From the IMG/VR virus record IMGVR_UViG_3300044638_008494, positions 1 through 64,000 of that record: a stretch of DNA of 64,000 nucleotides; one strand, written 5' to 3'. Below, piece by piece: positions 1,621 through 48,289 of this stretch; position 1 is the first letter of the stretch; each line of letters starts with the position of its first letter. The position numbers and the translations under genes are program-made. The notes beneath the pieces were generated by a model. It did no database searches. It was given only the letters and a program-made list of their open reading frames with translations, and was not told where the DNA came from. This DNA comes from a virus.

Positions 1621-4203
1621 CTAATTTTCTAAAGTTTCCTTTGAATCTTTTAAATCCTTTAATTTGCAATAAATCTTATTCGATTGTATTCCAAGATCAT
1701 TAATGTAAATTGCGTCTGGCCCCTTCACGGCCCCAGAAATGACTACGATGTCGTTCTCCTCTGGAAGCTTGCCGCCATTTTTATCCATCATTTCTTGAAT
1801 TTTGTTACGGTTGCTGTCAAAAACCATTGCTGCAACTTCGCTTGTTTCATCAGAAATAATTACTTTTACATATTTATTGCCACGTTGAGATGTTCGCTTT
1901 GTAACTTCTTGAACAACACCAACTACCATAACCTTATCGCCCTCCTTCTTGCTTTTAATGTCAATAATCGAATTGAACGAAGGATTCTTTTCTCTATAAA
2001 TTTTATTTAAAGATTGCGAGTATGGATTTCCAAGAAGAGTATATTCATACCAAAAATTTGCCAGATCTTCATTTCTACTATTTAATAAATAGATTTTTTT
2101 GTAAGGCTCATATTTTTTCTTAATAGTTTCAAACCTAGATGGCTTGATAATAAAATCACCATCAGTTGCATCTGAAAGCTTTTTGATATTATCAAGAATA
2201 TCTGTTTCTCCATTGGCAAACATTTGACGGATCATGTTTTTTTCACGATCTGTAAGAATATTATATGTTTGAGCTTCTAATGCAAGTTTAGATCTTGACT
2301 TGCCAAAGCCATCAAGCGCACCGGCCTGAATCATTGCTGAAAGAGCGCCAATATTAATTTTAGCTTCTTTAGCGGCATCAAAACATTCCATTTTATTTGT
2401 AAAATTAGAACGAAATGCAATAACATTTTTAAGAGTTTTTTCTGAAATACCCTTGATGGCTGAAAGTCCGTAGCGAATGTTATCACCTTCAATTTTAAAA
2501 TCAACATCTGATTTAGCCAAATGCGGCGGCAGCAGTTCAATACCAAAAGCTTTCATTTCATGACAAATCAATCTTGATTGCTCAAGGAAGTCTGATTCGT
2601 TAACAGCCATTCGTAGAAGTGCCAAGAAAAATTCTTTGGGATAATTAAACTTTAAATATGTGGTAATTGCAGAAAGGGATGCATATGGATAGGCATGCCC
2701 TGCACAGAATGAATAGTTCGCGCTGTCTTCGAGAATTTTCCAGTAGAAATCAGCAATCTCTTCGCCAAGCTTTAGTTCTTTTGCCTTGGTATAAATAATC
2801 TCTTTCCACTTGGGCATCTCTTCGCGCTTTTTCTTGCCAACAATCTTTCTTAGGGTTTCAGCTTCGCTCAATGTGAGTCCGAAAACTTTATGCCCAATTG
2901 CCATCATTTGCTCTTGATAGAGTGCAGCGCCGCCAGTTCTTTTTAATACCTCGTCAACCTTTGGGTGAAATTCTGGAAATTCTCCATAGTTTGCATATCG
3001 AGCATATTGCTCTGCAAAGGCTAAAGCCCCTGGTCTTGCAATTGCTACCACGGCGGCAAGCTGATCGAGATTTTTTGGCTTTACTTGTTTGCAAACATTA
3101 TAATTTGTAAACGCCTCAATTTGAAAAATTCCGTGTGGGTATTTTAAATCCTGCAAATGTGCATAAACAGTATCGTAATCTTCAACATCAATATCAAAAT
3201 AGTTTATCCCCACTTGAGTACAAACATCTTGCACTACAGAAAGGCTTTTTAGACCCAAGATATCAAGTTTGAGATTTATTTTCCCTGCCCATTCCATGTT
3301 GTATGAAGAAACTCTTTCCTTATCAGATGTCAACTCTGTTGGGCAAAAATTATTAATATTTTCATAAGAAACAAGATTTCCAGAAGCATGAACGCTTTTG
3401 TTTCTCATAAGGTCTTTTAATTGAATAGCTACACCGTAAATATCTTTATTTTCGTCACACCATTTTTTAAAATCTTCGTTATCTTTATATTCATCGTCAA
3501 TTTCATTAATCTTGCCAAACTTTGATTGGATCATAGAAGTAACAGCGTTCATCTCATCTTCTGTTTTATCCCCCACTATCTTTCCACAATCCTTGATTAA
3601 GGCTCTTCCAGAAAGTGTGCTTGTATTTAAAATTTTTGCTGTTCTATTGGGATAACGCTTTTCCAAATATTTGATAACTTCTTGGCGGCGATAATAACAA
3701 AAATCCATATCAATATCTGGCAAGAAGCTTCCATCAAAATAAACAATACCATCCACAATAGTTTTTTTGGCTCTTGTAGCTGAAATGAATCTTTCAAAAT
3801 AAAGATCGTATTTGATTGGATCTACCTTTGTAACTCCGATCAGATAAAGTATTAGACTGGATGCTGCAGATCCGCGACCAGGCCCAGTTGGAATGTTTTC
3901 TTTTTCACAAAAGTTGATCACATCCCAAATCATTAAAATATAGTCAACAAATCCAAGCTCTTGCAGTACTTTAAATTCTTTAACAGCGCGCTCTTTGTAT
4001 AAATCAATATTTGCCCCTTCTTCTTTTAATTTTGGAATAATTTTTTTAAAACCAGACTGGCAAAGGGCCTGTAAAAAGTCATCATTTGATGCATCTTTTG
4101 ATAGTTCAATTTTCTTTTTTTGAGTTGCTGTAAACTCAATAGTGGGACACCTTACGCCATGCAGGGGCAAGTCTAATTTATCAAAAGATTCTAGAAAGTT
4201 CAT
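1621..4203 (-). CDS. dnaE: DNA polymerase III alpha subunit, polymerase body without PHP domain
   Basis: This is the C-family replicative polymerase. It begins directly in the palm region and lacks the usual N-terminal PHP domain. The nucleotide-binding loop GPGRGSAASS is at about 107-116. The catalytic aspartates are in PDIDMDF (D165, D167), and the third is D314 in KLDILGLK. The SVHASG motif matches the thumb/finger region of bacterial DnaE. A C-terminal OB-type domain lies near residues 750-850. At 860 residues it is about 300 shorter than E. coli DnaE, and the missing part is accounted for by a separate PHP-like gene three genes upstream. It overlaps the ClpP-like gene by 4 bases. Identification is firm. 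Confidence 0.95.
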   Translation of the reverse strand: MNFLESFDKLDLPLHGVRCPTIEFTATQKKKIELSKDASNDDFLQALCQSGFKKIIPKLKEEGANIDLYKERAVKEFKVLQELGFVDYILMIWDVINFCEKENIPTGPGRGSAASSLILYLIGVTKVDPIKYDLYFERFISATRAKKTIVDGIVYFDGSFLPDIDMDFCYYRRQEVIKYLEKRYPNRTAKILNTSTLSGRALIKDCGKIVGDKTEDEMNAVTSMIQSKFGKINEIDDEYKDNEDFKKWCDENKDIYGVAIQLKDLMRNKSVHASGNLVSYENINNFCPTELTSDKERVSSYNMEWAGKINLKLDILGLKSLSVVQDVCTQVGINYFDIDVEDYDTVYAHLQDLKYPHGIFQIEAFTNYNVCKQVKPKNLDQLAAVVAIARPGALAFAEQYARYANYGEFPEFHPKVDEVLKRTGGAALYQEQMMAIGHKVFGLTLSEAETLRKIVGKKKREEMPKWKEIIYTKAKELKLGEEIADFYWKILEDSANYSFCAGHAYPYASLSAITTYLKFNYPKEFFLALLRMAVNESDFLEQSRLICHEMKAFGIELLPPHLAKSDVDFKIEGDNIRYGLSAIKGISEKTLKNVIAFRSNFTNKMECFDAAKEAKINIGALSAMIQAGALDGFGKSRSKLALEAQTYNILTDREKNMIRQMFANGETDILDNIKKLSDATDGDFIIKPSRFETIKKKYEPYKKIYLLNSRNEDLANFWYEYTLLGNPYSQSLNKIYREKNPSFNSIIDIKSKKEGDKVMVVGVVQEVTKRTSQRGNKYVKVIISDETSEVAAMVFDSNRNKIQEMMDKNGGKLPEENDIVVISGAVKGPDAIYINDLGIQSNKIYCKLKDLKDSKETLEN

Positions 4204-4868
4204 TTCTTTCTTAGCCTATTCTTTTTTGAATAATTAAGCAACATTGTTTGTTCTGTTTTTTGCATTTCGACTTTTAATCTCGGAACACCAATATGATCAG
4301 CAATTCCAAGTTGATATGTTGCTTTTGCATCCAAATAAAGATCAGCGTTATTATTTTTAATAAGCATTTTTTCAAAAGTGCCAGATTTCTTTTTGCAATT
4401 TTTATCCAGCATTAGAAGTAAATTACTATTTAGTTCAGAACAATGCTCTGCGCTAACAGCAATATCTGAGAATTTTCCATAATACTCATGAGATACCTGA
4501 TGGACAAGGACATAGCCATATTTTGAAATAAATCTCATTCCATGATCACCAGCAGATAACAAAACTGCACCACAGCTAAACGCTTTTCCATCACAAATTG
4601 TAGCAACTTTTTTGGTAGAGCTTTCAATAATAGAAAGCATTGCATGGAGAGCGTAAACATCGCCACCATAAGAATCTACGATTATGGGAATAATTTCTTG
4701 ATCAGAAGATTCAAGTCTGAAAAAATCTTCCCGAAATTCGTTAACTGCACCTTCGCAAATTTCATTAACAATAATAAAGTTATTGTTTTTTCTTTTAGTT
4801 AAACCTTGTAAATCTTGAATATCGATTTCAAACGGCAAATCATCTTGATTAATTTTAATTTCTTTCAT
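4200..4868 (-). CDS. clpP: ClpP-like serine protease
   Basis: The 222-residue protein has the ClpP/crotonase fold signature. The oxyanion segment is SYGGD. The nucleophile is S98 in GKAFSCG. The histidine is H123 in VLVHQ, and the acid is D176 in NADLYLDA, aligning with E. coli S97, H122 and D171, so the catalytic triad looks intact. Phage ClpP homologues usually lie beside portal or capsid genes as maturation proteases. This one lies between DNA polymerase and its exonuclease, overlapping each by 4 bases. No partner ATPase is visible in the window. It could process replication proteins, be a moonlighting maturation protease, or work with a host Clp ATPase. Confidence 0.9.
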   Translation of the reverse strand: MKEIKINQDDLPFEIDIQDLQGLTKRKNNNFIIVNEICEGAVNEFREDFFRLESSDQEIIPIIVDSYGGDVYALHAMLSIIESSTKKVATICDGKAFSCGAVLLSAGDHGMRFISKYGYVLVHQVSHEYYGKFSDIAVSAEHCSELNSNLLLMLDKNCKKKSGTFEKMLIKNNNADLYLDAKATYQLGIADHIGVPRLKVEMQKTEQTMLLNYSKKNRLRKK

Positions 4869-5509
4869 TGGTTTAATAAGTAAAGTTGTTTTTTTAGAAT
4901 TTGATATGTTAGTTCAACATCATACAAGCCATTGTGAGCAAGGCTTTTATCGTATGGGATGCTGTATTTCTTGCAAAGGTATTCTACTGAAGTTTTAAGA
5001 CCTTTTCTATTAAAAGATTTAAGTTTAAAATTCCAAGCTGCTTGTGATTGACCTTCGGGCTTTTGATATCCAATTTCAATAGCTTTTTCAATATTTTGAA
5101 CATCGTATATTCGTTCAATGTACGAGTAATCACTTTTCTTGCCTAAAGATCTTCGAAAAGTGTTATGTATAAAAATATCAAAACCAATCAGGTTAGCTCC
5201 AGAGATTAAAATGTCTCTATCAAATAAGTATTTCTCAAAGTGTTCAAGAACTTCTTTTGGATCTTCGCTTTTTTGCTTGTATTCGCTATGAATAAAGCCA
5301 GTTATTCTTGCAGCATCTGCAGACATTTTTAAATCTGGCCAGAATGGAAAACGATCATATTCTTCAATTTTTTCATTGCCTTGATAAACACAGTAAGAAA
5401 GTTGCCAAGGTCTGGATGAAAACAAATTCAAGTCCTCAGTTTCAAAATCGAAAATAAGCCATTTTTTATTGTTATCAAATCTTAATAAATTATTAATTTT
5501 ACGAGCCAT
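4865..5509 (-). CDS. DnaQ-like 3'-5' exonuclease (proofreading subunit)
   Basis: This is a DEDDh exonuclease. Exo I is FDFETED (D21, E23 from the chosen start), Exo II is GFDIFIHNTF, and Exo III is AHNGLYDVELT with the His and Asp of the DEDDh type. By family it removes mispaired 3' ends, and its place between the two parts of the polymerase makes it the likely epsilon-type proofreader. An upstream ATG at 5533 keeps the frame open, but the ATG at 5509 is preferred. A GGAAGGGTG purine run lies a few bases before it, and the overlap with the upstream gene is then only 11 bases. Length is about 214 residues, usual for epsilon-like domains. Confidence 0.88.
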   Translation of the reverse strand: MARKINNLLRFDNNKKWLIFDFETEDLNLFSSRPWQLSYCVYQGNEKIEEYDRFPFWPDLKMSADAARITGFIHSEYKQKSEDPKEVLEHFEKYLFDRDILISGANLIGFDIFIHNTFRRSLGKKSDYSYIERIYDVQNIEKAIEIGYQKPEGQSQAAWNFKLKSFNRKGLKTSVEYLCKKYSIPYDKSLAHNGLYDVELTYQILKKQLYLLNQ

Positions 5510-6254
5510 GAACTTCACCCTTCCATCGTTCAAAGTTAAATGTATCAGAACTCATATAGTTTAATTCGGGTTTCGATAATTTAGATTTGTTTAAAATACA
5601 GCGAAAAGATTGATATGCCTTGAAATTTTCTGACTTTTCATAGAAAATTGACTGTGCTGGGGTTAAAGTGCAGCCATGATCTGCAGAGCAATATAGCTCT
5701 AGAGCATCTTTTATAATTCCGTCAAACGGAAGACCATTATCTTCGACAAAGAAAGTATGTGGCATTCTTGATAGTGATGGTATAATTTCAGAAAATGTCA
5801 TTGTATTTTTAGCTACAAAAGAATCGTAAAATGGAAATGCTATGGTTAAATTCTTGGTGATAAGGTCATTGAAATTTTTCCAATCAATTCTTGGCAAATA
5901 ATAAAACCCATGCTCGCTAGCCCAAGCCCAAATCTTGATCAGGTCTTTATATCCTTTAGAATTTTTAATGAATAAAATAATTTTAGATTCATTTTTAAGA
6001 CTCTCTTCTTTTGTTGAAGCATCGTCTGTGATGATTAATTTTAATCCAAAACGCAAATTTAAATCAAGATCTTTACAATTCGAATATGCTTCAAGAAAGC
6101 CAGTCATAACGCTTTCAACCAAATAAACATCTTGAATGTTATTATTTTTACAAATATCAAGAATGGATTTTGGTCCAATCTCTGGGCTTTCTTTATCTAG
6201 TGTTAGAATAGATCGCCCAGAATAATGGGATGTCCACAAAGGAACTTTAAGCAT
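5499..6254 (-). CDS. Separate PHP-like domain of DNA polymerase III alpha
   Basis: The 251 residues resemble the N-terminal PHP region of DnaE. FGLKLIITDD matches the 'GIKPIIG' strand. LFIKNSKGYKDLIKI...GFYYLPRIDW matches the region of DnaE reading L-x-KN-x-GY-NL...GFYYKPRID. FKAYQSFRCI matches the segment just before the polymerase core. The metal-binding His-x-His of active PHP domains is absent (WTSHYSG in its place), so phosphoesterase activity is unlikely. Together with the 860-residue polymerase body it gives a normal total DnaE length. A structural or proofreader-docking role for a detached PHP is an inference. The ATG start is clear. Confidence 0.75.
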   Translation of the reverse strand: MLKVPLWTSHYSGRSILTLDKESPEIGPKSILDICKNNNIQDVYLVESVMTGFLEAYSNCKDLDLNLRFGLKLIITDDASTKEESLKNESKIILFIKNSKGYKDLIKIWAWASEHGFYYLPRIDWKNFNDLITKNLTIAFPFYDSFVAKNTMTFSEIIPSLSRMPHTFFVEDNGLPFDGIIKDALELYCSADHGCTLTPAQSIFYEKSENFKAYQSFRCILNKSKLSKPELNYMSSDTFNFERWKGEVHGS

Positions 6255-13768: not shown

Positions 13769-14464
13769 TTATCCGCAACTAGTAGTTGTTGTATAAACGG
13801 TTATTATTAATTGTTTTTTATTTTGAGTTGTATACTCTACTGGCATAATTAATGTTAGTTCTGGCTGAAATGCATTTTGAAAATCGCAAAGGACGGGGCA
13901 AAACACCAAACTTCCCGATGTGTTACCGGGCACCGCACAGCCATTTGGATTTGTAGCAATCGATTCTGAAGTTACTCTATACTTTAATTTATATTTTATT
14001 GTTGCATTACACCTTTTTGTTGTTGGTCCACCAACGTCTTCAGGATCCTTAACATCTGTTTCTGTATCTGTATCTGTATTACAAGTACAAGAGCAACTAT
14101 TGCCGCAGCTGCATTCTCCGCTATTTTCAGTTTCAGATTCGTTGTCAGAGTAAGGGTCCGACAGCTCTGGTTCGCCAAGCTCACAGCTTATTATTTCGGC
14201 ATATTGTTCTACATTACAATCAATCTCTATAATGCAACCCGTAAGGGCGCTAAGAACAGGGAATGATGCGCTTAATGTTGATTGGGTTGTTGGAAAAACA
14301 TCTTCTGCTTCTGGGCATTCAGGCCCTTCAACTAATTCTTCCCAAAATGTAGTCGTATTATTTGTAGTTGTGGTAGTGCATGTGCCGCCGCCACCTCCGC
14401 CTTTTGCGCAGCAGCTAGAGAATTTTGTAAAACCAAATTTTGTATCGCGTAGTAGTGTGTTCAT
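13769..14464 (-). CDS. Cysteine- and threonine-rich protein, probable virion component
   Basis: The 231 residues are unusual. A CCAKGGGGGGTCTTTTT stretch at 18-34 is followed by an acidic segment. A Cys-dense stretch (GECSCGNSCSCTCNTDTDTETD) lies at about 115-138. The second half is beta-rich (ATIKYKLKYRVTSES, ...LTLIMPVEYTT) and ends in ITVYTTTTSCG. The pairing of low-complexity Thr/Gly with a Cys cluster suggests a disulphide- or metal-stabilised surface protein. It is the last of three genes transcribed together from 17.5 kb. No family is recognised, and its virion role is inferred only from neighbours and composition. Confidence 0.6.
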   Translation of the reverse strand: MNTLLRDTKFGFTKFSSCCAKGGGGGGTCTTTTTNNTTTFWEELVEGPECPEAEDVFPTTQSTLSASFPVLSALTGCIIEIDCNVEQYAEIISCELGEPELSDPYSDNESETENSGECSCGNSCSCTCNTDTDTETDVKDPEDVGGPTTKRCNATIKYKLKYRVTSESIATNPNGCAVPGNTSGSLVFCPVLCDFQNAFQPELTLIMPVEYTTQNKKQLIITVYTTTTSCG

Positions 14465-17519: not shown

Positions 17520-17950
17520 GGGTCTATCATTCTTGCAGGTGCACTTCGCTCGCTCAGGCTTCTCGATCTGGTAGCCGTGGCTCCAGGCTGAGTTTACTTC
17601 CAAACGGACCCTCTCGGTTACACTTGCATGCTAGACAGACAGACCGCCAATTGTGTTATCGTACAGTTGTTTATACCATACATCTATATATTTCTATATA
17701 GTTCAGACTATATCTTGGTACCAGAAATTAATCTGGCACACCGGGCGCTCTTGGGCAGTTTTATTGTTGGGACTCAACCGCCTAGTCGTTACACCTTCTA
17801 TCCTATCTTTCCCAGATAGCTTGGCTCGGTATTGTCTTTTCGGCGTTTTTACACGCCAACGAAGGTATCCACCGAATTCACCCAGTAAGGACTGTTGTTA
17901 TAAATTTTTAAAAGAACTTGAACAAGTTATCCTGTTCACAATATGATTAC
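17520..17950 (-). ncRNA. Group I intron (ribozyme core), no homing gene inside
   Basis: On the minus strand the conserved core reads in order. P3 5' strand is ATACCTTC. P4 pairs TTGGC with GCCAA, enclosing P5 (GGCGT...ACGCC). P6 is a hairpin (CTATCT...AGATAG). P3 3' strand is GAAGGTGT. The R element AACGACTA pairs by P7 with the S element AAGATATAGTC, with a P8 domain (GGCGGTT...AACTGCC) between. P9 is TATATA-GAAA-TATATA. A more G+C-rich domain at about 17522-17648, closed by GGTCTGT/ATAGACC, follows. The splice sites were not fixed, so the ends are approximate. It lies between a 65-aa gene and the 811-aa gene, and neither frame continues into it. Confidence 0.85.
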
Positions 17951-22462: not shown

Positions 22463-22867
22463 TTATATTTTTATAAGTTGGATGTTAAATTCTTTTGCTA
22501 ACTCTACAGAAAAATCATCACGCTCGTAAGCTTCATTATAATATACTTCTTTAATTCCATACATGGATATATTTTTAATACATTCTGAGCATGGGCGAAG
22601 TGTCACCGCTATTAATTTAGCTTCATGTGGCTTAATGTAACGCAAAGCAGCGGCTTCTGCGTGAGATACTCGGCGGCGCCTTTCATCTCTATCGCTCCAA
22701 TTAATCTCAACGCCTGGTGGCGCTCCATTATAACCTATTGCAGCTACAGTATTATCATAGCGCAGAATACAGGCCCCGACCTTCCTGTAAGGATCTTCAG
22801 ATCTAAGCGCAGCAGCTTTCGCAAGCTCCATTGCATATTCTGGCCAAGTTAATCGTTCATGTATCAT
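22463..22867 (-). CDS. dCMP deaminase
   Basis: Zinc-binding motifs of the cytidine/deoxycytidylate deaminase family are clear: SHAEAAAL (His ligand and catalytic Glu) and LRPCSECIKN (two Cys ligands). An N-terminal segment DPYRKVGACI precedes YNGAPPG, typical of dCMP deaminases. It deaminates dCMP to dUMP. The ATG at 22867 overlaps the stop of the ribonucleotide reductase (ATGA), and a TTG three codons further upstream is less likely. At 134 residues it lacks any large allosteric extension. Confidence 0.93.
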   Translation of the reverse strand: MIHERLTWPEYAMELAKAAALRSEDPYRKVGACILRYDNTVAAIGYNGAPPGVEINWSDRDERRRRVSHAEAAALRYIKPHEAKLIAVTLRPCSECIKNISMYGIKEVYYNEAYERDDFSVELAKEFNIQLIKI

Positions 22868-25188
22868 ATTTGACAAGCACCACCAGCACAGGCTTGGGCT
22901 CCAAGAGTCGCGGCCTCTACATAGGTTTGATCTTTTTCTATTACACTAGACCAATCAACTTCTCGATGTTCTCTTTGTATATCGCACCATGCTTTCCACA
23001 AGGTAACATGTTTTAAGCAATGTGCTGTCCTGCGATCATCGCCATTAAAATATCTTTGAGAAAATTGCTTTGCTCTCCTTAACCAGTCTTTTTTCGCAAA
23101 CCAATTGTCATATTCTGTTTTTTTCCCATAGTATGAAATAATCTTTTCATTATGCTCTTTAAGAGTATATCCATTCTTATGTGGAAATGCTGGCTCAAGC
23201 ATGGTTTCTGAAACTTGCTCGCCAATGCCAAGAAATGCATCGCATGCTTTCCATAGATTACCGTCAAAAGCAGCCAATCCGTCTACAGTCAATCCAGAGG
23301 CAAACACCGAAGCGTTTCCATACTGCTCGACAATCTCTTCTGGAGTTAAAACAGTGCTGAATGGGGCTTGCGGATAGTCAAGATCGCCAGAGGATGGCAA
23401 CAATGATATGCCTGAAAAATATTCTTGATTATTAAAAATAAACTTTTCAACATCTTTCCATTCATTTGGCTGAACAACTACTGTGCATGATACATTATGT
23501 CTAACATATGGTTTTACGCATAGTTCTTGATTTGTGCCGTGCTCTACCCAGTTTCTTTGAGTGGATTTGATTTGATCTAAAAACTGAACTGCTGATGTGG
23601 CATTTTTTAAAATAGCACCCCTTGGAACTTCGCATAAAAACGAAACAACCTCATCCGTTCCGTTAGCTGACCAAACGCTTGTTTCTACAGCAAGTGGATT
23701 TTGTGACTTGTAATGCTGTGCTGGAAATTCATTGCGATTGGCTTGAACTCTACGAATGTATCGTTTTGCATGATGTGGGTGTATGCCAGAAGCGGTTCCA
23801 AGCACGCAACTGGTTGAGCCAGCTGGCTTTACGCATGTTGTTCTAGCAGATTGGTTAATACCGATCATTGCCGCGATTTTTTTATTTGTTTTTTTAATTT
23901 CTTCTGCGCCCCTTCTTTGAATTTTAGAATCAAGAAGAATTTCAGGATTATCCATAAATCCAGTTATCGAGCATCCAAGAAGAGCCTCTCTTTCAACTAT
24001 TTTTTTGGTAGTATCTGTTAAATAATTAAAGCGAGTATATCCTGCCTGCATTGTTCCCAAAATAGCAGATGCGCGACACGCTTCATAAAACTCATCTTCG
24101 CTTGTACAGAATTTTCCATTAATCTCTGTTAGATTGCAGACTTGTATACCGCTCTTGCCATTAAAGTTTGGAATCATTCCAATTTCAGCGCATGGATTAT
24201 ATACAACGTCTGTTCCGTGTAGCCAAATAAACCCAGGCTCACCAAATTGCCTAGTTGACTCCATAAGGCTATGGAACTCTTCTGAGGTTGTTTTGCCTTT
24301 AATCAGTACGGCAGAATTATTAGACCTTGCTCTTTGAGGATTTTCTATAAACCAATTGCCAGTTTTGGCAGCAGCCATTTCTCCATCATTTAGCGAAAAT
24401 TGGCAGATAGTAGCAGATCTACGAACGCCACCAGATAAAACTGCATCGCTAGCATGCATAATAATATCATATGCATCTATTGGGCGCAACTTTCCAGCAA
24501 ATTCATCTGTTTTGAATTCTACACTATTGATTCGCTTCTCAATCAGCGCCCTAATTTTTTCTATTGCTTTTTCAAGGCCTTTGTGCCCAGGCGCTTTAAA
24601 TTGACCAGCTATCAAGGCACCTTCTGGGCGAACAAGGCTGTAATCGAAATTTACTTTGTGCCCAGACATTTCTGGGAATTCGCTGTCTTTTTCTGCAAAA
24701 TAGCTATTAACAATAACTCCAATTGCATCAGCCCATCCATCAATAGAATCGTCAACTTTCCATTTTCTCCAAGCCGTTCCGTCAACTTGACGAAGTTTGG
24801 GAAGTTTATTTATATGTTCGCTTTGAACTGAAAATCCAAGCCCAACACCACAAAGAAGAACATACATTGACTCTTGAAAAGATCTTGGTCTGTCAATATA
24901 AGTAGAAGAGCAGTTGTAAATTTTAAATTCTTCTTTTTCAATCCATTTTCCACCAAATTGCAAAGCTCTTTGTGAGCCAAGAACTCTCTTTTTTCTTACC
25001 ATTCTTTTTGCGAATTCAAACTCTTCTTTAAATTCTGGATTTGATTCCAGTATATGCGCATATTTTCTAGCATGCATTCCAAAAACACGCTCTACAATTT
25101 CTGGCCAAGTTTCTCTCCTTTGCTTCTCTGGCAGATAGTGTGAATATTTTGCGTACAGTGTGTATTCTGAAAGTGCTTTTAGACTCAT
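22864..25188 (-). CDS. nrdJ: Class II (adenosylcobalamin-dependent) ribonucleotide reductase
   Basis: The 774-residue protein resembles the monomeric Lactobacillus-type ribonucleoside triphosphate reductase. YAKYSHYLPEKQRRETW matches its N-terminus. MYVLLCGVGLGFSVQ holds the first active-site cysteine region. VYNPCAEIG carries the radical Cys and Glu. The C-terminus ACAGGACQI has the redox-shuttle cysteine pair. Reduction of NTPs uses coenzyme B12 and needs no oxygen or second subunit. It starts an operon with dCMP deaminase and dUTPase downstream. B12 must come from the host, as no synthesis gene is seen. Identification is firm. Confidence 0.95.
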   Translation of the reverse strand: MSLKALSEYTLYAKYSHYLPEKQRRETWPEIVERVFGMHARKYAHILESNPEFKEEFEFAKRMVRKKRVLGSQRALQFGGKWIEKEEFKIYNCSSTYIDRPRSFQESMYVLLCGVGLGFSVQSEHINKLPKLRQVDGTAWRKWKVDDSIDGWADAIGVIVNSYFAEKDSEFPEMSGHKVNFDYSLVRPEGALIAGQFKAPGHKGLEKAIEKIRALIEKRINSVEFKTDEFAGKLRPIDAYDIIMHASDAVLSGGVRRSATICQFSLNDGEMAAAKTGNWFIENPQRARSNNSAVLIKGKTTSEEFHSLMESTRQFGEPGFIWLHGTDVVYNPCAEIGMIPNFNGKSGIQVCNLTEINGKFCTSEDEFYEACRASAILGTMQAGYTRFNYLTDTTKKIVEREALLGCSITGFMDNPEILLDSKIQRRGAEEIKKTNKKIAAMIGINQSARTTCVKPAGSTSCVLGTASGIHPHHAKRYIRRVQANRNEFPAQHYKSQNPLAVETSVWSANGTDEVVSFLCEVPRGAILKNATSAVQFLDQIKSTQRNWVEHGTNQELCVKPYVRHNVSCTVVVQPNEWKDVEKFIFNNQEYFSGISLLPSSGDLDYPQAPFSTVLTPEEIVEQYGNASVFASGLTVDGLAAFDGNLWKACDAFLGIGEQVSETMLEPAFPHKNGYTLKEHNEKIISYYGKKTEYDNWFAKKDWLRRAKQFSQRYFNGDDRRTAHCLKHVTLWKAWCDIQREHREVDWSSVIEKDQTYVEAATLGAQACAGGACQI

Positions 25189-39721: not shown

Positions 39722-41758
39722 TTATAGAAGCCCAGCCTGCTGAAGTAGCGCTATAGTTGCAGAATCAAGCTTTCCAGCGCTTGCTAGTTCTGCTATTGAA
39801 TTTAATATATTAGCACTAAGATTCGAACTTGTAGCTGATACTGGCACTTCTACAGCTGGAGAAATATTTACTTCCAACCTTACAGAACTACCAGCTGGAC
39901 TACCAAGGATCCTAACAGCCTCTCTATACCTTTCCGCCAAATCTAAAATACTATTATCCTTCCCCCTAAACTGGTTTAAATTTAAACTAAAAATTTGCCT
40001 AAACTCTCTCTCTTCTGAAGGTTCGATTTCTATTGTAGACTCATCGACTATTGATGACTGATCTGTATGCTGGAAAAAAGTATCACACTGTACTGGATTT
40101 GGAAAATAATATCTACCAGGGGTTAAATCTTTTAATGTCTCACCAAGCTTGCACGACCTGAAAGATTGTTCTCCGGATTTGACATATAAATTGTATGGGG
40201 CTTTTATTGCTTTTTTAACATATCTTTTATAATATTTTTGTTTATATATTGGACCATCGTAAGTAACTGTACCAGCAGACCACCAAGGCTCATCGCTCAT
40301 ATATGAAGCTCTAATTGCCTTAGGGTATGGCAAAAGTTCTCCATTTTTCTTCGATGTTCTGCAAAAAAGCCTATCTAATTTTAAATCTAAAAAAGTTCTA
40401 GTAAGTTCGCAGCCAAGAGATGGGCATTGTCGCTCAACAACATCACCAAATGATGCACCACCATCAGCAGAAAATTTAACATCAGCATATTCTGGATTTA
40501 TTCCAGATGGAATATCACAATGAATCCACCCAAAATTTCCAATTCCAGAAATTAAATTCTGATTTTTATTTTTAACAGCAACATCGGTAATTGTGATTTT
40601 TCCACCAGAAGATATTGCCCCCTTAAATCCATCAACTACATATTTATTATTTCCATTCCCAGTAGTAAAGGAAGCCTCTGGGATTTTATTGTCCGAACTG
40701 TTATATTCAAATTCATTTATGGTAGGAATTTTTTTACCATAAAGATCTATTCCATAAGATCCCTCTTCGGCGCTAATTGTTCCTAGCATATGATCAGCTT
40801 TGCCACCAATGAAAACGCTCTCATCAGCCAAATGGTTTAATTTTATATCTTTTTCGCCAAAATTAAATTTACTTTGCATTTCACGCCCCCAATCATCTAA
40901 AAATTTTTGGTCGCTATATGGAACTCCACCAATCCTGTCTAATAAAAATATTTTGGCTTCATATTCCCTTACTGCAAACCATCCATCCATACATTGGCGT
41001 AATATGCAAAAAGCCACGCAATGGCAATAATTGCAATTTACCGAATTCAAAATTGTATACTCATACCATCCAATATTTGGCTCAGGGCCTCTGGCTATTC
41101 TACCATACCAGTCCAGAACAAACCCTGTATTAAAATATGGAAAGTGATCTTTATTATTGACATCCCAATAATTATCAATATTATCTGTTAAACTATTCAT
41201 CATTGACCACGGCCATCCGCATTGTACATCTTCATAAGTGCAAGGATAGCACGGCTCTCCGCAACCAAACCAAAATGATAAAAATAGTGGGGAAAATCCA
41301 CCCAAAATTGTACCATCATCTCTCCATTTAACTACTTTACCATTAATTTCATTAATACTTTCACTAACTATTCCATGCATTTTATGCAGTCTAAAAGTAT
41401 CTGTTTTTCCAGCCTGACCAATGTATTGATTTTCAAACCAAAATGGATTGGCAATAGCAAAACTGCTTATACATCTAGGATCTGTTTTAATAATATCTTC
41501 TTGTAAAATAAATCCCTTATCATAAAAAAAACCATTTACATACCATCCTTGCAAATAATCACCAGGATTGTATCCAGCAGTTGCATCATAATCACAAAAA
41601 AACTTTAATCCTCTTGGGGGAAATTGCCAAGGGTCTTTGAACCAATCCACATAGTAAGCATATGTTCTAGAACTCCCTACAAAATAATTGCCTTGATTGC
41701 ATAAGGATGAGTCAATACAATCATTATCAGACAAATCTAGAGTTAAATCGATTGGCAT
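39722..41758 (-). CDS. Tail or fibre structural protein
   Basis: The 678-residue protein is rich in Trp, Tyr, Cys and Asn. Paired cysteines recur (CGEPCYPCTYEDVQCGW, NCNYCHCVAFC, RQCPSLGCELTR). GPEPNIGWYEYTIL and YYKRYVKKAIKAPYNLYVKSGEQ are beta-rich. The final 120 residues form a Ser/Glu linker and an Ala/Leu-rich helix (LNSIAELASAGKLDSATIALLQQAGLL), of the kind used for trimerisation or for joining to a partner. No lysozyme or peptidase motif is seen. As the last gene of the tail block it is a candidate tip or receptor-binding protein. Confidence 0.6.
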   Translation of the reverse strand: MPIDLTLDLSDNDCIDSSLCNQGNYFVGSSRTYAYYVDWFKDPWQFPPRGLKFFCDYDATAGYNPGDYLQGWYVNGFFYDKGFILQEDIIKTDPRCISSFAIANPFWFENQYIGQAGKTDTFRLHKMHGIVSESINEINGKVVKWRDDGTILGGFSPLFLSFWFGCGEPCYPCTYEDVQCGWPWSMMNSLTDNIDNYWDVNNKDHFPYFNTGFVLDWYGRIARGPEPNIGWYEYTILNSVNCNYCHCVAFCILRQCMDGWFAVREYEAKIFLLDRIGGVPYSDQKFLDDWGREMQSKFNFGEKDIKLNHLADESVFIGGKADHMLGTISAEEGSYGIDLYGKKIPTINEFEYNSSDNKIPEASFTTGNGNNKYVVDGFKGAISSGGKITITDVAVKNKNQNLISGIGNFGWIHCDIPSGINPEYADVKFSADGGASFGDVVERQCPSLGCELTRTFLDLKLDRLFCRTSKKNGELLPYPKAIRASYMSDEPWWSAGTVTYDGPIYKQKYYKRYVKKAIKAPYNLYVKSGEQSFRSCKLGETLKDLTPGRYYFPNPVQCDTFFQHTDQSSIVDESTIEIEPSEEREFRQIFSLNLNQFRGKDNSILDLAERYREAVRILGSPAGSSVRLEVNISPAVEVPVSATSSNLSANILNSIAELASAGKLDSATIALLQQAGLL

Positions 41759-41769
41759 TTTGATTAAAC

Positions 41770-42252
41770 TTACGGCTCCGGCGCAAAAGGCGCAGGCAGT
41801 AAAAAGAAATATTTACATGATTGCATAACCATAACATTGTTATACATATGCCTATAAACGATTAATTCACCGGAGTTTGTGTTTACAAATTTCCCCTGCA
41901 CTTTTTGATTTTTTGTAACAGAAAATATTGGAGCATACAATGCTGTTTGATCTTTTATTTTTTTTGAAGACCCAGAGTAAGATATTGTTTGCGGGTAATC
42001 CTGCCACCATTTATCATCGCTTATAACTTTAACTTCTTGAATCCCCCCATTGTTAAAAGTTAATTTTAAATATACTTTTACACTCTCTGTGATTATATTC
42101 GCAGGCATTGATAATCTTGTCGCAGAAGCCAAATCTGTTCCATCTGCAAAAAGAAAAGAATCATACGACATTCTAAATGAATTTCCAACTATTATTGGCG
42201 CGAATGGTCCGCCTACATTTGATGTACTGAAAATTGGACTTACTGGTCTCAT
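41770..42252 (-). CDS. Tail-associated structural protein
   Basis: The 160 residues are beta-rich (GNSFRMSYDSFLFADG, ESVKVYLKLTFNNGGIQEVKVI, GELIVYRHMYNNVMVM), with a Pro-rich ending FLLPAPFAPEP. This composition suits a baseplate, tip or fibre-connector protein. It is located between two large tail proteins with spacings of 11 bases and 1 base. No family is recognised. Confidence 0.5.
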   Translation of the reverse strand: MRPVSPIFSTSNVGGPFAPIIVGNSFRMSYDSFLFADGTDLASATRLSMPANIITESVKVYLKLTFNNGGIQEVKVISDDKWWQDYPQTISYSGSSKKIKDQTALYAPIFSVTKNQKVQGKFVNTNSGELIVYRHMYNNVMVMQSCKYFFLLPAPFAPEP

Positions 42253-42253
42253 A

Positions 42254-44167
42254 TTAATATTTTTGCTCTGTTATGGTATAATTTGCTCGTAATTGTCTAT
42301 AAATATCTTCATCAGTAAATAATAATCCAGAATACGTTGCTCCATTTGTTCCAGATATAATATACATAGCCTGTCCAAGAAATTCAAAAGAATTATTAAA
42401 TTCAATTTGTTTGCTTATCATTAAATTATAACTTTGGTAATTTAAAAATGGAACAGTTTTGATGTATCCTGTAATTTGATTTTTATCATGCAATTCATCA
42501 CCATTAATTTGCAGAGTTATATTTCTATCGCTATAAATATTAAATCCACTCTCTATGTTTCCGAATATCCCACTTGAAATTAAATTATTATTTTCATTAT
42601 ATAAGCTATTTCCGTTTGATAAGTATATATTATCTTTATAATACACTGGCAACTGCCCAGTTAAGCCATCTCCAGTTATTCCGGTCATTGTTCCTGAAAA
42701 ATACCCAGAAGCACTTCCTGAAAATAAAACTATATATTGTTTATTATAATTAAACTCTATTTCTGGAACATTAAATGTAAAATATTCTCCTGATAAGTAT
42801 TTTCCAGTCAAATTATTGAAATTGCGCCCACTTTCATATATCTTATTAAATCCAGTTAAGCTTCCGGTAAAACCATTTCCTTCATACAAATATAAATACA
42901 ATGAACCGCTTGGATTATTTCTTATAATCCCAGATTTCCATTGAGATGCATTATTTCCTAAAATTATATTGGGTGGCATTACAGCACCACTCAACCCACT
43001 AATTCCAGTAGGCACTATGCCGCTCAATCCTGTTGGTACGCCACTTTTATACAAATTAACAGTAATGCCTGTTATGGTCCAATATTTTTTATGGTACTCT
43101 TGAATTCCGCTCTGTTGAAAAATTCTTCCACCAAATTCACTATTTGTGATATAGCCATTAGATGTATTACTGTATATATTTTGATTATTATTAGTATTGC
43201 TTGATAATATTAAATTATTCTTTACCGGAAGATCAAAATTAAACCATGCAGTTGTATTTGCAGTATTTGGCTTTATAAACCATGATCCAGTAAAACTATC
43301 TTGATATCCATTTAAAAATCTATTATTGTTTTGCAAGCCAGACAAAGTTACAAAAAATCCAGAAGTTTTAGAATAGGTGCTATATAAGTCTAGAATAATA
43401 TTCCAGTTTGAATATAAATCTGAAATATTTAGCGTATCCAAAGATCCAACAACTACATTTCCTACAACGCTTAAAACGCCTGATTCAAGTGGATTTGAAA
43501 ATCTTAATATTGATAATGTTTGATTTATAGTTCCAAAATTTGTATTTAAAACTAACGGAAGATAATAGCTAGAATACGGTTCGCTTTGTAAAATTGTTAA
43601 ATCTACGTAAGACTGTGGATCTATCTGTATATTTTTATTTTGATTTCCAGAAAAAACAAAATAATTAGTAGCGTTACTTGTAGGATTTATATTAATATCA
43701 TGTACAACAAATGGAAATGAATTATTTTGATCGCCAGATATTTTTAAATTTAATGGATTTTTATAATAATCAGCCTGCTTATATATAATATTATATAACG
43801 GCCTGTCTCCATTTATTTTAATATCTAAATCTTTTTCAAAATTCAAACTACCGTTCCAAGATAAATTTATTCCAGAGCAAAATCCATAATCTCCTGTTGT
43901 ATTATAAATAATATTATTGTCAATAGATAAATTAAAATTATTTTTTGATAAATTTCCAGATAGATTAAAAAATTTATTTTTTGGATCAACAAAATATATA
44001 AAATTATCACTTTTATCTTTTATCTTGCCACTTTCTATTGTAATTTTTTCTCGCACATTTTGAGATAAAAAATCAAAATTCGTACTATAAAAATTATCAT
44101 AATTCATATAGCTTATGCTAAATGATATTCCACTTTGAGGATAAAAATTTATACCAGAATATTTCAT
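42254..44167 (-). CDS. Large tail/tip structural protein with Gly-Ser-Asn-rich repeats
   Basis: The 637 residues contain many short SG, TG and NLSG turns. The pattern KIYESGRNFNNLTGKYLSGEYFTFNVPEI resembles carbohydrate-binding beta-sandwich domains that decorate cell surface and phage tail proteins. The N-terminal half is Asn-rich and beta-rich (NLSGNLSKNNFNLSIDNN). No enzyme motif is visible. Probably a tail fibre or host-recognition protein. It overlaps the next gene upstream by 4 bases (ATGA). Confidence 0.55.
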   Translation of the reverse strand: MKYSGINFYPQSGISFSISYMNYDNFYSTNFDFLSQNVREKITIESGKIKDKSDNFIYFVDPKNKFFNLSGNLSKNNFNLSIDNNIIYNTTGDYGFCSGINLSWNGSLNFEKDLDIKINGDRPLYNIIYKQADYYKNPLNLKISGDQNNSFPFVVHDININPTSNATNYFVFSGNQNKNIQIDPQSYVDLTILQSEPYSSYYLPLVLNTNFGTINQTLSILRFSNPLESGVLSVVGNVVVGSLDTLNISDLYSNWNIILDLYSTYSKTSGFFVTLSGLQNNNRFLNGYQDSFTGSWFIKPNTANTTAWFNFDLPVKNNLILSSNTNNNQNIYSNTSNGYITNSEFGGRIFQQSGIQEYHKKYWTITGITVNLYKSGVPTGLSGIVPTGISGLSGAVMPPNIILGNNASQWKSGIIRNNPSGSLYLYLYEGNGFTGSLTGFNKIYESGRNFNNLTGKYLSGEYFTFNVPEIEFNYNKQYIVLFSGSASGYFSGTMTGITGDGLTGQLPVYYKDNIYLSNGNSLYNENNNLISSGIFGNIESGFNIYSDRNITLQINGDELHDKNQITGYIKTVPFLNYQSYNLMISKQIEFNNSFEFLGQAMYIISGTNGATYSGLLFTDEDIYRQLRANYTITEQKY

Positions 44168-46464
44168 GACATTCTATTACTGACGTTTGTTTGAACTGCC
44201 GAGACAAGATTTCTTTGCAGTTTAGGTTTAAATGGTATGTCTTTATAACTATATGAAACTAAAAGACCAGCACTATCTACAGTTGCCGTTAATGACTGTA
44301 AGGTTGGGACAATTGGCAAATAAAATCCATCACATGTTGCACTATAAGTTTTTAATGGCTCCGTTGTGCCCCCAGATTCTGGCGTGTAAAGTTCTTCTCG
44401 AACATCCGTTTCTTGCGGGGTAATATCTGAAATATTTACAGTATGTGATAATGCTGTACTGCTAATTCCTCCACTTTTTGCCCATGTATTGCTTGGCGAA
44501 GTATTTCCATTAGCAATAGTTTTAGAATATTGCGCGGTAGTTCTTCTAACAACTCTATACTTAGAAAAAGATGGATATACAAATAAAACGGTCTGACCAT
44601 TGCAAGAACATACATTTCCAAAACCACGAGCAGATCCCAAACCAGGAAGGGGAGCGCTTTCGGTATCATCATACGAGGTATCGTCATCGAAATCTTTAAT
44701 AACACTTTTACATGGATTATTGTATTCCTTGTCTTTTTCTGCTGCCTCTTCTAGTGCTTTTTCTTGATCTTCATTACTTATTGCATTTGGATCCTCGTAA
44801 CCAATTGTATCAGGAAGATCATTATAGTTAGTAAATTGTGGCATTATTGTAGATCCAGCAGTTACTAGTGGAAAAATTCCACGCTTTGGGTATCTTACAT
44901 ATACTATCCTAAAGCCATCATTTTCAATTGAACTTCTTAAACTTCCAGGAGCTACGACCTGCTTTTCGTTTCCGCCGCCAAGATCAATCCATGAATATCC
45001 ATTATTATTATCGTAAAGACTGCAAAAAATATCATGACTTACTCCGACAAAACAATCCTGCACTGCATCATCAAACTCGGATGAGTCAGAGTTGCCTTCT
45101 ATCCAAGTAGAAACTGACCTCCACAACCCCATTCTTACAAGACCAACCTCATCTTCCCATGTTCCACCTATTGGATTCAATCCTCGCCTAGTTGTTGCTG
45201 GACTATATTCTACGCGCTTTATTTTTAATGACCCGTCTGCCAATGAGCCTAACCGCGAAACATCAGATGTATTGCTATATGGATAAAAAAGTTCCATATT
45301 TTTTGGTGGCTTCTGTATATTCTCCAAATCTTTAACTAAATAAAATGAACCACCCTCTCCAACACCCAAATATTCCAATATGTTAGCTCTCAAACTTTTG
45401 TTAAAATTAAAATTATATTTATAATATAAATTTTCTCTTTCATCCCCAGATGGGGAACCGGGTATACCAATTGATCCATAATTTTTTAGCCCAACTAAGC
45501 TAAAATTTTCTCCCCAAACAGCATATGCAGTTCTGTAGGCTGGTATGGTATCAAATAGTATGTCAAAAGCAGATGGATAATTTGGGTGAGGTATTGGAGA
45601 TACGTCAAACGAATCATGAACTACAGTTGATGCAGATCCATCAATGGCTTCGAAACTTTTATCTCTTTGAAAAAGCCAAGAAGAAAGCGTATATGTCCCT
45701 TCTTTTGTCCATCCTTCGTCTACAGATAAAATTCCGCAACCTTCTTTTGGTAAATCTTCTGGAACAGAAATGCTACCATTGAATTTTTTCAATGCCTGTC
45801 TGGCCGTTGCATATCTCCAATCCCACCAATAATAACATCCAACATCATTATATATGCTAGCAAGAACAGTTCTGTAAGATCCCTCATAAGACACCCTTCC
45901 GCCAGAAATATTTGGAGCGCCAATAATATTCAAAGCTTCATTTGGATCATAATCCACATCACTTGGTTCACAAGGGTTAGTTGTAAATTTTTCTCTTCCC
46001 AATCCGCCCGCACCAGTGCCTTGAAACCTTGACACAACATAATACTCATCCCTTGTTTCTATTCTAAATTCAACACCGCGACTTCCTGCAGAAATTCTTA
46101 ATCTGGTAATTCTTAATGTTTTACCTACTGTTGTGGTAGTAGATGGCAATCCTCTTCTAAATAAAACTATAGAATTCTGATCCAGATATATAGAATTATC
46201 CATATATTGATAAGTTATTAAATTTTTACCTTGCTCATAATGCCTATTATATCCAATGAGCGTTCCGGCAAATTGAATTCCATTAAAATTTAATACCTGA
46301 GCATTTTGATTAAAATTTGATTGAAACGCTCCACCACCAGCTGCAATTTCGCCAGCAGCGAGCGTTGTTACCGATAATTTTGCTGGAGAATCTGTAACTG
46401 AAGCACTTAAAGAAACATTGATAATTCCCTGATTTGCCCCAATCGATCTGATATTTATTGCCAT
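44164..46464 (-). CDS. Large tail structural protein, possible tip component
   Basis: The 766-residue protein has an N-terminal beta region (INIRSIGANQGIINVSLSASVTDSPAKLSV, RITRLRISAGSRGVEFRIETRDEYYVV) and several Cys-containing loops (GCYYWWDWRYATARQALK, GNVCSCNGQTVLFVYP). It ends in a region with YLPIVPTLQSLTATVDSAG. A negatively charged linker (EEAAEKDKEY) lies near 600. No lytic domain is recognised. It sits in the middle of the tail genes, so a hub, tip or fibre-attachment role is likely. Confidence 0.55.
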   Translation of the reverse strand: MAINIRSIGANQGIINVSLSASVTDSPAKLSVTTLAAGEIAAGGGAFQSNFNQNAQVLNFNGIQFAGTLIGYNRHYEQGKNLITYQYMDNSIYLDQNSIVLFRRGLPSTTTTVGKTLRITRLRISAGSRGVEFRIETRDEYYVVSRFQGTGAGGLGREKFTTNPCEPSDVDYDPNEALNIIGAPNISGGRVSYEGSYRTVLASIYNDVGCYYWWDWRYATARQALKKFNGSISVPEDLPKEGCGILSVDEGWTKEGTYTLSSWLFQRDKSFEAIDGSASTVVHDSFDVSPIPHPNYPSAFDILFDTIPAYRTAYAVWGENFSLVGLKNYGSIGIPGSPSGDERENLYYKYNFNFNKSLRANILEYLGVGEGGSFYLVKDLENIQKPPKNMELFYPYSNTSDVSRLGSLADGSLKIKRVEYSPATTRRGLNPIGGTWEDEVGLVRMGLWRSVSTWIEGNSDSSEFDDAVQDCFVGVSHDIFCSLYDNNNGYSWIDLGGGNEKQVVAPGSLRSSIENDGFRIVYVRYPKRGIFPLVTAGSTIMPQFTNYNDLPDTIGYEDPNAISNEDQEKALEEAAEKDKEYNNPCKSVIKDFDDDTSYDDTESAPLPGLGSARGFGNVCSCNGQTVLFVYPSFSKYRVVRRTTAQYSKTIANGNTSPSNTWAKSGGISSTALSHTVNISDITPQETDVREELYTPESGGTTEPLKTYSATCDGFYLPIVPTLQSLTATVDSAGLLVSYSYKDIPFKPKLQRNLVSAVQTNVSNRMS

Positions 46465-46482
46465 TTATTTTATTTAATATTA

Positions 46483-48285
46483 TTATATTTCAAATAATAT
46501 ATTTCCTCCATTTTTTATATAAAAAAGACTACTTGCTAAAAACTCATCTTCTAGCTCAATATAGTCTATATTATTTGTATACCTTACCCCATTAAGCCAA
46601 ACAGATGATGTATTTTTTGCTATACTATTTACATTAAATAATCTTCCAGAATCATTTAATACATATTTTATTTTAAAATTTTTATTAGCAATATTTTGTG
46701 TGGAAATTATATTATAACCAGAAGGAATGTTTCTTAATATTTTATTTGGCAGCTGATAGTCCATACCAGATGCAAGTAATTGTCCATTTAAAAAACATAA
46801 TTTATTACTAAAATTAATATTATTAATATTAGATCCGCTACTTATATTTCCAGTTACTATGTATTCTTGATTTGGCCAAGAATCAATTAAAATATTGCTC
46901 GTAGACAATTCAGAAGATATGCGATTGGTATATATGTATGCTCCGGTTGTAAAATAGTCTCTTGTTGGATTATAAAAAATTTGACCGCTGGAAACAATAG
47001 GATTATATGACTGTTCTTTTATTTGTAATTGGCCGTTATAATAATACCCAGAAACATTTTGCAAATTATTAGAAAGGGTTGGCTTAAGTCGATTTGTATT
47101 ATTTTCAAATATTGCATTTGAATATCCAATATTGTCATCATATAAATTTGAACCAAGAATAAACAGCCTATCGCTATTATCAATTGAATTATTTAAAAAT
47201 ATATAATCTACATATTCTGTTATATATTTATAATTAGAAGCTATAGGCAATTTATTAATAATAGTGTATTCAAGAACATAGCCAGATTCAAATTCAAAAT
47301 TTCTAATTCCTGTTAGTGTTTGACACACATTAACATTTATTGTTTGCGGCGTAAATCCACTTATTCCATTATTTGATACGCCTTGTAGAAATTCATTGTA
47401 TATTTCATTGTTAAAATCATTAAGCTCTATATGGCTAGCAAAATATGTTGACTCATCTGTTAATTGAACAAACGATCCAGTCGTTTCTTGCCTAACGTAA
47501 CACCTAACCAATTCAATAATTTCAGAATCAATAATGCCTGTCGTTCCGCTTATTAATCCAGTCAATATCTGATCTTGCAAATCTATAACGCTACCACTAA
47601 TGAATGACTGCTCGTAATAAGATTTATTAAAAACAGAAAGATCATAAATAAATATATCTGATATTTTTGCCTTCAATAAGTTCTTGCTGTTTTCAAAATT
47701 AATTCCACTGCCTAAAGTATAATTATTAGAATAATTATTATTTATATCTCCGAATTGAACTGTTGATTTGTTAATAGATTTATTAATAGAACTATAACAT
47801 CCAACCGAATAATTTATTGGAGATATTTCACAATAAAAAATACCTGTTTTTGGAGCCTTGGCGTTATGACAATATGTTATTGGTCCAATAATATTATCAT
47901 AATATTCTATATATGGAAAACCAAATGGACTTATTCCAAAATTAACTCCTGAATATGTTGAATTTGTTTTTCCAAAAGAGGAAATGAAAACGTTATTTTG
48001 TCCAGTAAAACTCTCTATTTCATATGTCATTAGAAACGCAACATTTTGAGAATTTAAATTTCTAATTTTTGCAAAATCTTTATCTAAAAATCCAACCCCA
48101 CTATATTTCCAAAAATTATTAGGATTAGCTATTTCTAAATTCAAAGATTGAGCAGACCATGCAGATCCAGATAATATTGACTTGCCGCTAACTCCACTTT
48201 CATTAAAATCAAAATATGCAAAAGCCGTATTTTTATTAAAAAACGGGTCTTTCTCTAAAAAAAACTGTGTAGATTTATTTGACAT
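46483..48285 (-). CDS. Tail structural protein with surface-loop-rich composition
   Basis: The 600-residue protein is Asn-, Ser-, Tyr- and Ile-rich, with repeated short Gly-Ser turns (SGVSGKSILSGSAW, SGTTGIID, SGSNINNINFSN) and beta strands typical of phage fibres. It contains a lectin-like segment (FLMTYEIESFTGQNNVFISSFGKTN). No enzymatic motif is visible. It is flanked on both sides by other tail proteins and is likely a fibre or tip-side protein. Confidence 0.55.
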   Translation of the reverse strand: MSNKSTQFFLEKDPFFNKNTAFAYFDFNESGVSGKSILSGSAWSAQSLNLEIANPNNFWKYSGVGFLDKDFAKIRNLNSQNVAFLMTYEIESFTGQNNVFISSFGKTNSTYSGVNFGISPFGFPYIEYYDNIIGPITYCHNAKAPKTGIFYCEISPINYSVGCYSSINKSINKSTVQFGDINNNYSNNYTLGSGINFENSKNLLKAKISDIFIYDLSVFNKSYYEQSFISGSVIDLQDQILTGLISGTTGIIDSEIIELVRCYVRQETTGSFVQLTDESTYFASHIELNDFNNEIYNEFLQGVSNNGISGFTPQTINVNVCQTLTGIRNFEFESGYVLEYTIINKLPIASNYKYITEYVDYIFLNNSIDNSDRLFILGSNLYDDNIGYSNAIFENNTNRLKPTLSNNLQNVSGYYYNGQLQIKEQSYNPIVSSGQIFYNPTRDYFTTGAYIYTNRISSELSTSNILIDSWPNQEYIVTGNISSGSNINNINFSNKLCFLNGQLLASGMDYQLPNKILRNIPSGYNIISTQNIANKNFKIKYVLNDSGRLFNVNSIAKNTSSVWLNGVRYTNNIDYIELEDEFLASSLFYIKNGGNILFEI

Positions 48286-48289
48286 ATTT

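What the first reader, a model, noticed from the sequence alone, without database searches (positions are those of the whole stretch)
1621..6254. DNA polymerase III alpha split into polymerase body and separate PHP-like protein
Seen: the 860-residue DnaE starts without a PHP domain, and a 251-residue PHP-like protein is encoded separately, with exonuclease and ClpP genes in between. Together the two parts equal normal DnaE length. Known: PHP and polymerase are normally one chain in bacterial DnaE. Inference: the phage assembles a multi-chain core in which PHP may dock the proofreading exonuclease.
Basis: partly seen in the sequence, partly recalled or inferred. Interest (0 to 1): 0.75.

Follow-up and report, generated by a model that had tools for sequence, protein, structure and literature searches.

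The report
Phage polymerase III split in two
A large group of uncultured bacterial viruses makes its main DNA-copying enzyme from separate pieces: a domain that in bacteria is built into the polymerase chain (PHP) is its own small protein here, has lost its metal site, and is encoded next to a separate proofreading enzyme.

Summary
In transcription order on the minus strand lie PHP (6254-5499), a DEDDh exonuclease (5509-4865), a ClpP-like gene and the DnaE polymerase body (4203-1621). PHP and polymerase match adjacent, non-overlapping parts of one DnaE model. An AlphaFold model of PHP matches only DnaE/PolC PHP domains in the PDB. This is no artefact: 75 other contigs carry the module, and in all 73 where both genes can be read they are separate, in the order PHP, exonuclease, polymerase. 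ClpP is an inserted cargo gene.

All nine PHP metal ligands are lost in 40 distinct sequences, while exonuclease and polymerase catalytic residues are invariant. Likeliest reading: a multi-chain Pol III core with inactive PHP as a structural subunit. Evolutionary rates tie PHP and exonuclease each to the polymerase more than to each other. Physical assembly is inferred, not shown.

Precedent: Rhodococcus phages Trina, Peregrin, Weasels2 and Grayson also split at this boundary. Trina's is an independent split with an intact PHP metal site. Verdict: real, conserved, a new variant of a known kind.

The parts
5499..6254 (-). PHP protein, 251 aa: DnaE-type PHP domain encoded alone, all nine metal ligands lost
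   Evidence: Pfam PHP 6.5e-9; 40/40 homologues match PHP; profile hits only DnaE/PolC in PDB, 3.8e-11; AF2 model pLDDT 85.9, Foldseek matches DnaE/PolC PHP only; ligand columns
4865..5509 (-). DEDDh proofreading-type exonuclease, 214 aa from the ATG at 5509; starts 11 nt inside the PHP gene
   Evidence: phrog_192 DNA polymerase exonuclease subunit 4.8e-15; D21, E23, D111, H192, D197 invariant in 37; overlap conserved; ribosome-binding site
4200..4868 (-). ClpP-like serine protease, 222 aa; cargo gene between exonuclease and polymerase, not a conserved part of the module
   Evidence: Pfam CLP_protease 3.4e-25; before PHP in the L004 subgroup and not detected in most other loci; other genes occupy the same gaps
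1621..4203 (-). DnaE-type Pol III alpha without PHP: palm, thumb, fingers, HHH, OB fold, 860 aa
   Evidence: Pfam DNA_pol3_alpha 7e-60, finger 4e-30, HHH_6 2.7e-19, OB 2.9e-5; D163, D165, D314 invariant in 31; AF2 pLDDT 85.0, Foldseek matches DnaE structures

Best explanation
[quoted passage not shown] The most likely working form is a multi-chain replicative core: the PHP protein has lost its metal site, is not a nuclease, and acts as a structural subunit that sits on the polymerase as the covalent PHP does in bacteria. The separate DEDDh exonuclease proofreads. The polymerase body carries the catalytic Asp triad. Shown here: identity of the parts, clean breakpoint, loss of all nine PHP ligands, intact exonuclease and polymerase sites, conserved gene order without fusion, one origin of this split, and rate covariation of PHP and of exonuclease with the polymerase. 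Inferred: that the chains bind one another, that PHP is needed for polymerase stability, and that the exonuclease proofreads for this polymerase.
For: TIGR00594 splits into exactly two adjacent matches in the virus record. PHP has a DnaE/PolC PHP fold, with every PDB match up to E 1e-3 a C-family polymerase. In 73 of 73 readable contigs PHP and POL are separate and in the order PHP-EXO-POL, often with 4-26 nt overlaps. Metal ligands changed in 40 sequences: Glu to Arg 39/40, His to Lys 40/40, Cys to Phe 40/40. DEDDh residues invariant in 37 and polymerase Asp residues in 31. Split family is one clade, support 100. Rate covariation of tree distances, partial r: PHP-POL 0.76, EXO-POL 0.33, PHP-EXO 0.18, with PHP-POL the highest of 15 pairs; without the L004 group EXO-POL 0.77, PHP-POL 0.70, PHP-EXO 0.48. 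In E. coli the inactive PHP domain stabilises the whole polymerase, and loss of PHP activity goes with having a separate exonuclease (PMC3666897).
Against: Rate covariation is indirect, the sequences are phylogenetically related, POL-PRI is also high (0.57), and the rank order changes with the taxa used (in the smallest subset PHP-POL falls to 0.46). PHP diverges fast (35% identity between window and L004). No host or expression data.
Confidence: 0.77

Rival explanations
1. The PHP protein's main retained job is to dock the exonuclease next to the polymerase, as the PHP domain does for epsilon in E. coli.
For: PHP and exonuclease genes keep their order in all loci and overlap by 4-26 nt in many; inactive PHP plus active DEDDh is the E. 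coli combination (PMC3666897); best Foldseek hit is the E. coli PHP-epsilon chimera 4gx9.
Against: The exonuclease has no C-terminal segment (17-21 residues after the last Asp), the part that binds alpha in E. coli (PMC4478557). Rates tie the exonuclease to POL more than to PHP. In many loci other genes separate PHP from EXO. The chimera hit reflects its PHP part, and other DnaE chains score alike.
Confidence: 0.25
2. The PHP protein has left the polymerase and does something else in infection; POL works without any PHP.
For: It is a separate, fast-diverging protein without the catalytic site. No binding was tested.
Against: PHP always sits with EXO and POL, the two genes together cover a normal DnaE, the fold remains that of DnaE PHP, and rate covariation with POL is among the strongest found.
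Confidence: 0.12
3. The two halves are joined after transcription or translation (split intein, frameshift, trans-splicing intron) into one chain.
For: Split DnaE inteins exist in cyanobacteria (PMC3919608); the virus record carries a group I intron elsewhere.
Against: PHP ends a few residues after the domain and POL starts about 20 residues before its own, with no room for intein halves. Complete genes lie between the halves. Rfam finds no intron near the locus.
Confidence: 0.02
4. Assembly or sequencing artefact, or a decaying polymerase gene.
For: The source is an uncultured virus contig.
Against: 75 other contigs down to about 35% PHP identity carry the same arrangement, and catalytic residues are invariant.
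Confidence: 0.01

Closest known systems
Split DnaE of Rhodococcus phages Trina (gp101/gp102), Peregrin, Weasels2, Grayson
   Same: Separate PHP gene followed by a PHP-less polymerase gene; in Trina broken at the same PHP/palm linker
   Different: In Trina PHP keeps all nine metal ligands and the two genes abut without an exonuclease gene between. Its polymerase groups with fused Braelyn; one clade with the present family is rejected, AU p 0.0015, so the splits are independent. The other three were seen only as two adjacent annotations
E. coli DNA polymerase III core (alpha, epsilon)
   Same: DnaE-type polymerase, metal-free PHP, proofreading by a separate DEDDh exonuclease
   Different: PHP is part of alpha in E. 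coli (five of nine ligands lost, PMC3666897); epsilon has a C-terminal alpha-binding segment that the phage exonuclease lacks
PolC of Gram-positive bacteria
   Same: PHP, DEDDh exonuclease and polymerase belong together; PolC exonucleases are among the nearest sequence matches of EXO
   Different: One chain with the exonuclease inserted inside PHP and the OB fold at the N-terminal side; here separate chains and a C-terminal OB fold
Phage DnaE genes split elsewhere: Cellulophaga phi13:1, Mycobacterium MrMiyagi, Rossellomorea phiT1, Alicyclobacillus KKP_3916
   Same: Alpha subunit encoded by more than one ORF
   Different: Breaks inside the polymerase domain, with PHP staying attached to the first polymerase part

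Membership tests
DnaE-type DNA polymerase III alpha | C-family palm with catalytic Asp triad, fingers, HHH, C-terminal OB fold | tested here: met
   Pfam domains, invariant Asp, fold match to DnaE
DnaE-type DNA polymerase III alpha | PHP domain on the same polypeptide as the polymerase | tested here: not met
   PHP is a separate ORF in window and in 73 of 73 readable contigs
DnaE PHP domain | PHP fold of the DnaE/PolC kind | tested here: met
Active PHP exonuclease | Nine ligands HHDHEH[C/H]DH | tested here: not met
   None of the nine ligand positions is conserved in the 40 sequences
Pol III epsilon (DnaQ) proofreader | DEDDh active site | tested here: met
   Five residues invariant in 37 sequences
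Pol III epsilon (DnaQ) proofreader | C-terminal alpha-binding segment of E. coli type | tested here: not met
   17-21 residues after the last Asp against a 243-residue epsilon with its binding segment after residue 186 (PMC4478557)
PolC | Exonuclease inserted into PHP, one chain, OB fold on the N-terminal side | tested here: not met
   Separate genes, OB fold at 758-828 of POL
Trina-type split DnaE | Common origin with the Rhodococcus phage Trina split | tested here: not met
   Joint clade rejected, AU p 0.0015
Multi-chain Pol III core | PHP, POL and EXO physically bind | not testable with these tools
   Only single chains could be modelled; indirect support from rate covariation

The most novel reading that the evidence does not exclude
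The clade has turned the PHP domain into a genuine trans-acting Pol III subunit with the metal cluster replaced by a conserved protein ionic network (Glu to Arg, His to Lys, His to Lys/Arg, His to Asp/Asn), and with a bare DEDDh exonuclease that docks directly on the polymerase rather than through PHP: a replicase core with a different wiring from E. coli Pol III and from PolC.
Probability: 0.3. Interest if true: 0.7.

Novelty: new variant of a known kind. Interest (0 to 1): 0.52.

Why it matters
The PHP domain is described as present on the same chain in C-family polymerases, and why an inactive PHP is kept has been open (PMC3666897, PMC12926913). A clade in which PHP is a separate, metal-free protein lets that question be tested by simple addition or omission: polymerase, exonuclease and PHP can be purified apart and recombined. 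Beside Rhodococcus phages it is a second, independent case, which indicates that the covalent link is dispensable.

Tried and rejected
1) Mosaic idea: window EXO is closest to L004-type phages (47-50%) and PHP to another group (43-49%), which suggested exonuclease exchange; trees do not support it (EXO and POL both put the window beside the L004 group, PHP unresolved; rates differ). The polymerase tree with fused outgroups places the window differently within the family, so its exact position is unsure. 2) PHP-EXO fusion by frameshift: PHP and EXO are in the +1 phase in many loci, but the overlap is only 4-26 nt, EXO has its own ATG and ribosome-binding site, and other loci have other phases or hundreds of bases between them. 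3) ClpP as part of the polymerase: rejected, cargo. 4) DNA-level relatives among isolated phages: essentially none, one 162-base match. 5) Sliding clamp in the virus record: none found, but the record may be incomplete. 7) A paper discussing such a split was not found in the open library; [quoted passage not shown]

Full report
Observation. The window is part of a 107,022-base virus record. On the minus strand, in transcription order, lie PHP (6254-5499, 251 aa), exonuclease (ATG 5509 to 4865), a ClpP-like gene (4868-4200) and the polymerase (4203-1621, 860 aa). Neighbouring genes overlap by 11, 4 and 4 nt. The polymerase has the DnaE palm/thumb domain, fingers, helix-hairpin-helix and OB fold but no PHP. 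A search of the whole record with the alpha-subunit model TIGR00594 gives two places only: model 40-240 in PHP and 286-1022 in POL.

It is a DnaE PHP. The window protein alone matches Pfam PHP at 6.5e-9, and all 40 distinct homologues match PHP. A profile of the family finds only DnaE and PolC in the PDB (3e0d 3.8e-11). The AlphaFold model (pLDDT 85.9, pTM 0.85) matches PHP domains of DnaE and PolC in ranks 1-23 and nothing else convincingly. The polymerase model (pLDDT 85.0) matches DnaE structures.

It is conserved. Scans of IMG/VR with the PHP and POL sequences and alignments and of the genome collection gave 64 viral contigs and 11 contigs binned into metagenome-assembled genomes of unrelated taxa, so the host is unknown. 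The gene order is RecA, helicase, primase, RecB-like nuclease, PHP, EXO, POL with variations. In all 73 contigs in which both PHP and POL can be read they are separate ORFs. Many loci have PHP and EXO overlapping by 4-26 nt and EXO and POL overlapping by 4 nt. Others carry extra genes in the two gaps: a cupin-like protein, a SET-like protein, LAGLIDADG-type endonucleases, glycosyltransferase-like proteins (names by inspection of the sequences). ClpP is between EXO and POL only in the window's close kin, before PHP in the L004 subgroup, and not detected in most others.

Active sites. Against Trina gp101, which has the complete HHDHEHCDH set (the motif used in PMC12926913), all nine ligand positions are changed in the family: for example Glu to Arg in 39 of 40, His to Lys in 40 of 40, Cys to Phe in 40 of 40. 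The exonuclease DEDDh residues are invariant in 37. The polymerase Asp residues D163, D165 and D314 are invariant in 31. E. coli PHP has lost five of nine ligands, and loss goes with a separate exonuclease (PMC3666897), so the pattern fits known logic but goes further.

Breakpoint. In the fused phage polymerase L086 the PHP model ends at residue 255 and POL-model position 25 begins at 286. The two separate genes thus account for almost all of a fused DnaE: the break is in the linker, nothing large is lost, and there is no room for intein halves. Rfam finds no intron near.

Origin. In a tree of polymerase cores the split family is one clade (support 100) within a set of fused phage and bacterial DnaE. 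Rhodococcus phage Trina has an independent split at the same boundary: it groups with fused Braelyn (support 100), and one clade with the present family is rejected (AU p 0.0015). Peregrin, Weasels2 and Grayson show the same two adjacent annotations. Other phage DnaE genes are broken inside the polymerase domain. PHP, EXO and POL trees of the present family share the same main groups, so the module appears to be inherited together.

How it may work. Rate covariation across 39 loci and six replication genes gives PHP-POL the highest partial correlation (0.76; raw 0.93), against PHP-EXO 0.18. Without the L004 group, EXO-POL (0.77) and PHP-POL (0.70) lead and PHP-EXO is 0.48; in the smallest subset PHP-POL is 0.46 and EXO-POL 0.71. 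This suggests POL as the hub for both partners. The exonuclease is a bare domain without the C-terminal segment that binds alpha in E. coli (PMC4478557). I therefore favour a multi-chain core in which PHP is a metal-free structural subunit on POL and the exonuclease proofreads, possibly docking on POL. Physical contact is inference.

Literature. Open-access searches found no description of this split. Papers state that PHP is universal in C-family polymerases (PMC12926913) and on a single polypeptide (PMC3666897). The library lacks most subscription papers, so absence there is weak evidence.

Noticed in passing
window 17684-17937, minus strand: Complete group I catalytic intron (Rfam RF00028, 69.9 bits, E 1.1e-15); the host gene it interrupts was not clear from the flanking frames.
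   Followed up: partly
window 51392-60718, minus strand: 3108-aa tape measure protein (phrog_4211 1.6e-42, Pfam PhageMin_Tail 6.7e-29), suggesting a very long tail; most neighbouring large ORFs (39722-51389) match no Pfam or PHROG family.
   Followed up: no
window 18188-38943: Many sugar-metabolism and glycosyltransferase genes (GDP-mannose dehydratase, GT17, GT9, phrog_2170) and a ribonucleotide reductase at 22864-25188.
   Followed up: no
L017:3726-6692 and L104:9614-12601: In these two relatives the POL gene itself is read in two ORFs around residue 500-565, a further break or an inserted element.
   Followed up: no
L004:4108-5046, L049:9394-10182, L063:6558-7397: LAGLIDADG-like free-standing endonuclease ORFs inserted between replication genes of the family, by inspection of the sequences.
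   Followed up: no
window 13769-14464, minus strand: 231-aa low-complexity protein with runs of Gly, Cys and Thr near its start; no PHROG match.
   Followed up: no
L074:2909-6466 and L075:2909-4486: Chryseobacterium phage MA9V-3 and Cellulophaga phage phi13:1 DnaE carry an extra N-terminal region of about 120 residues before PHP, and PHP ligands are partly lost.
   Followed up: no
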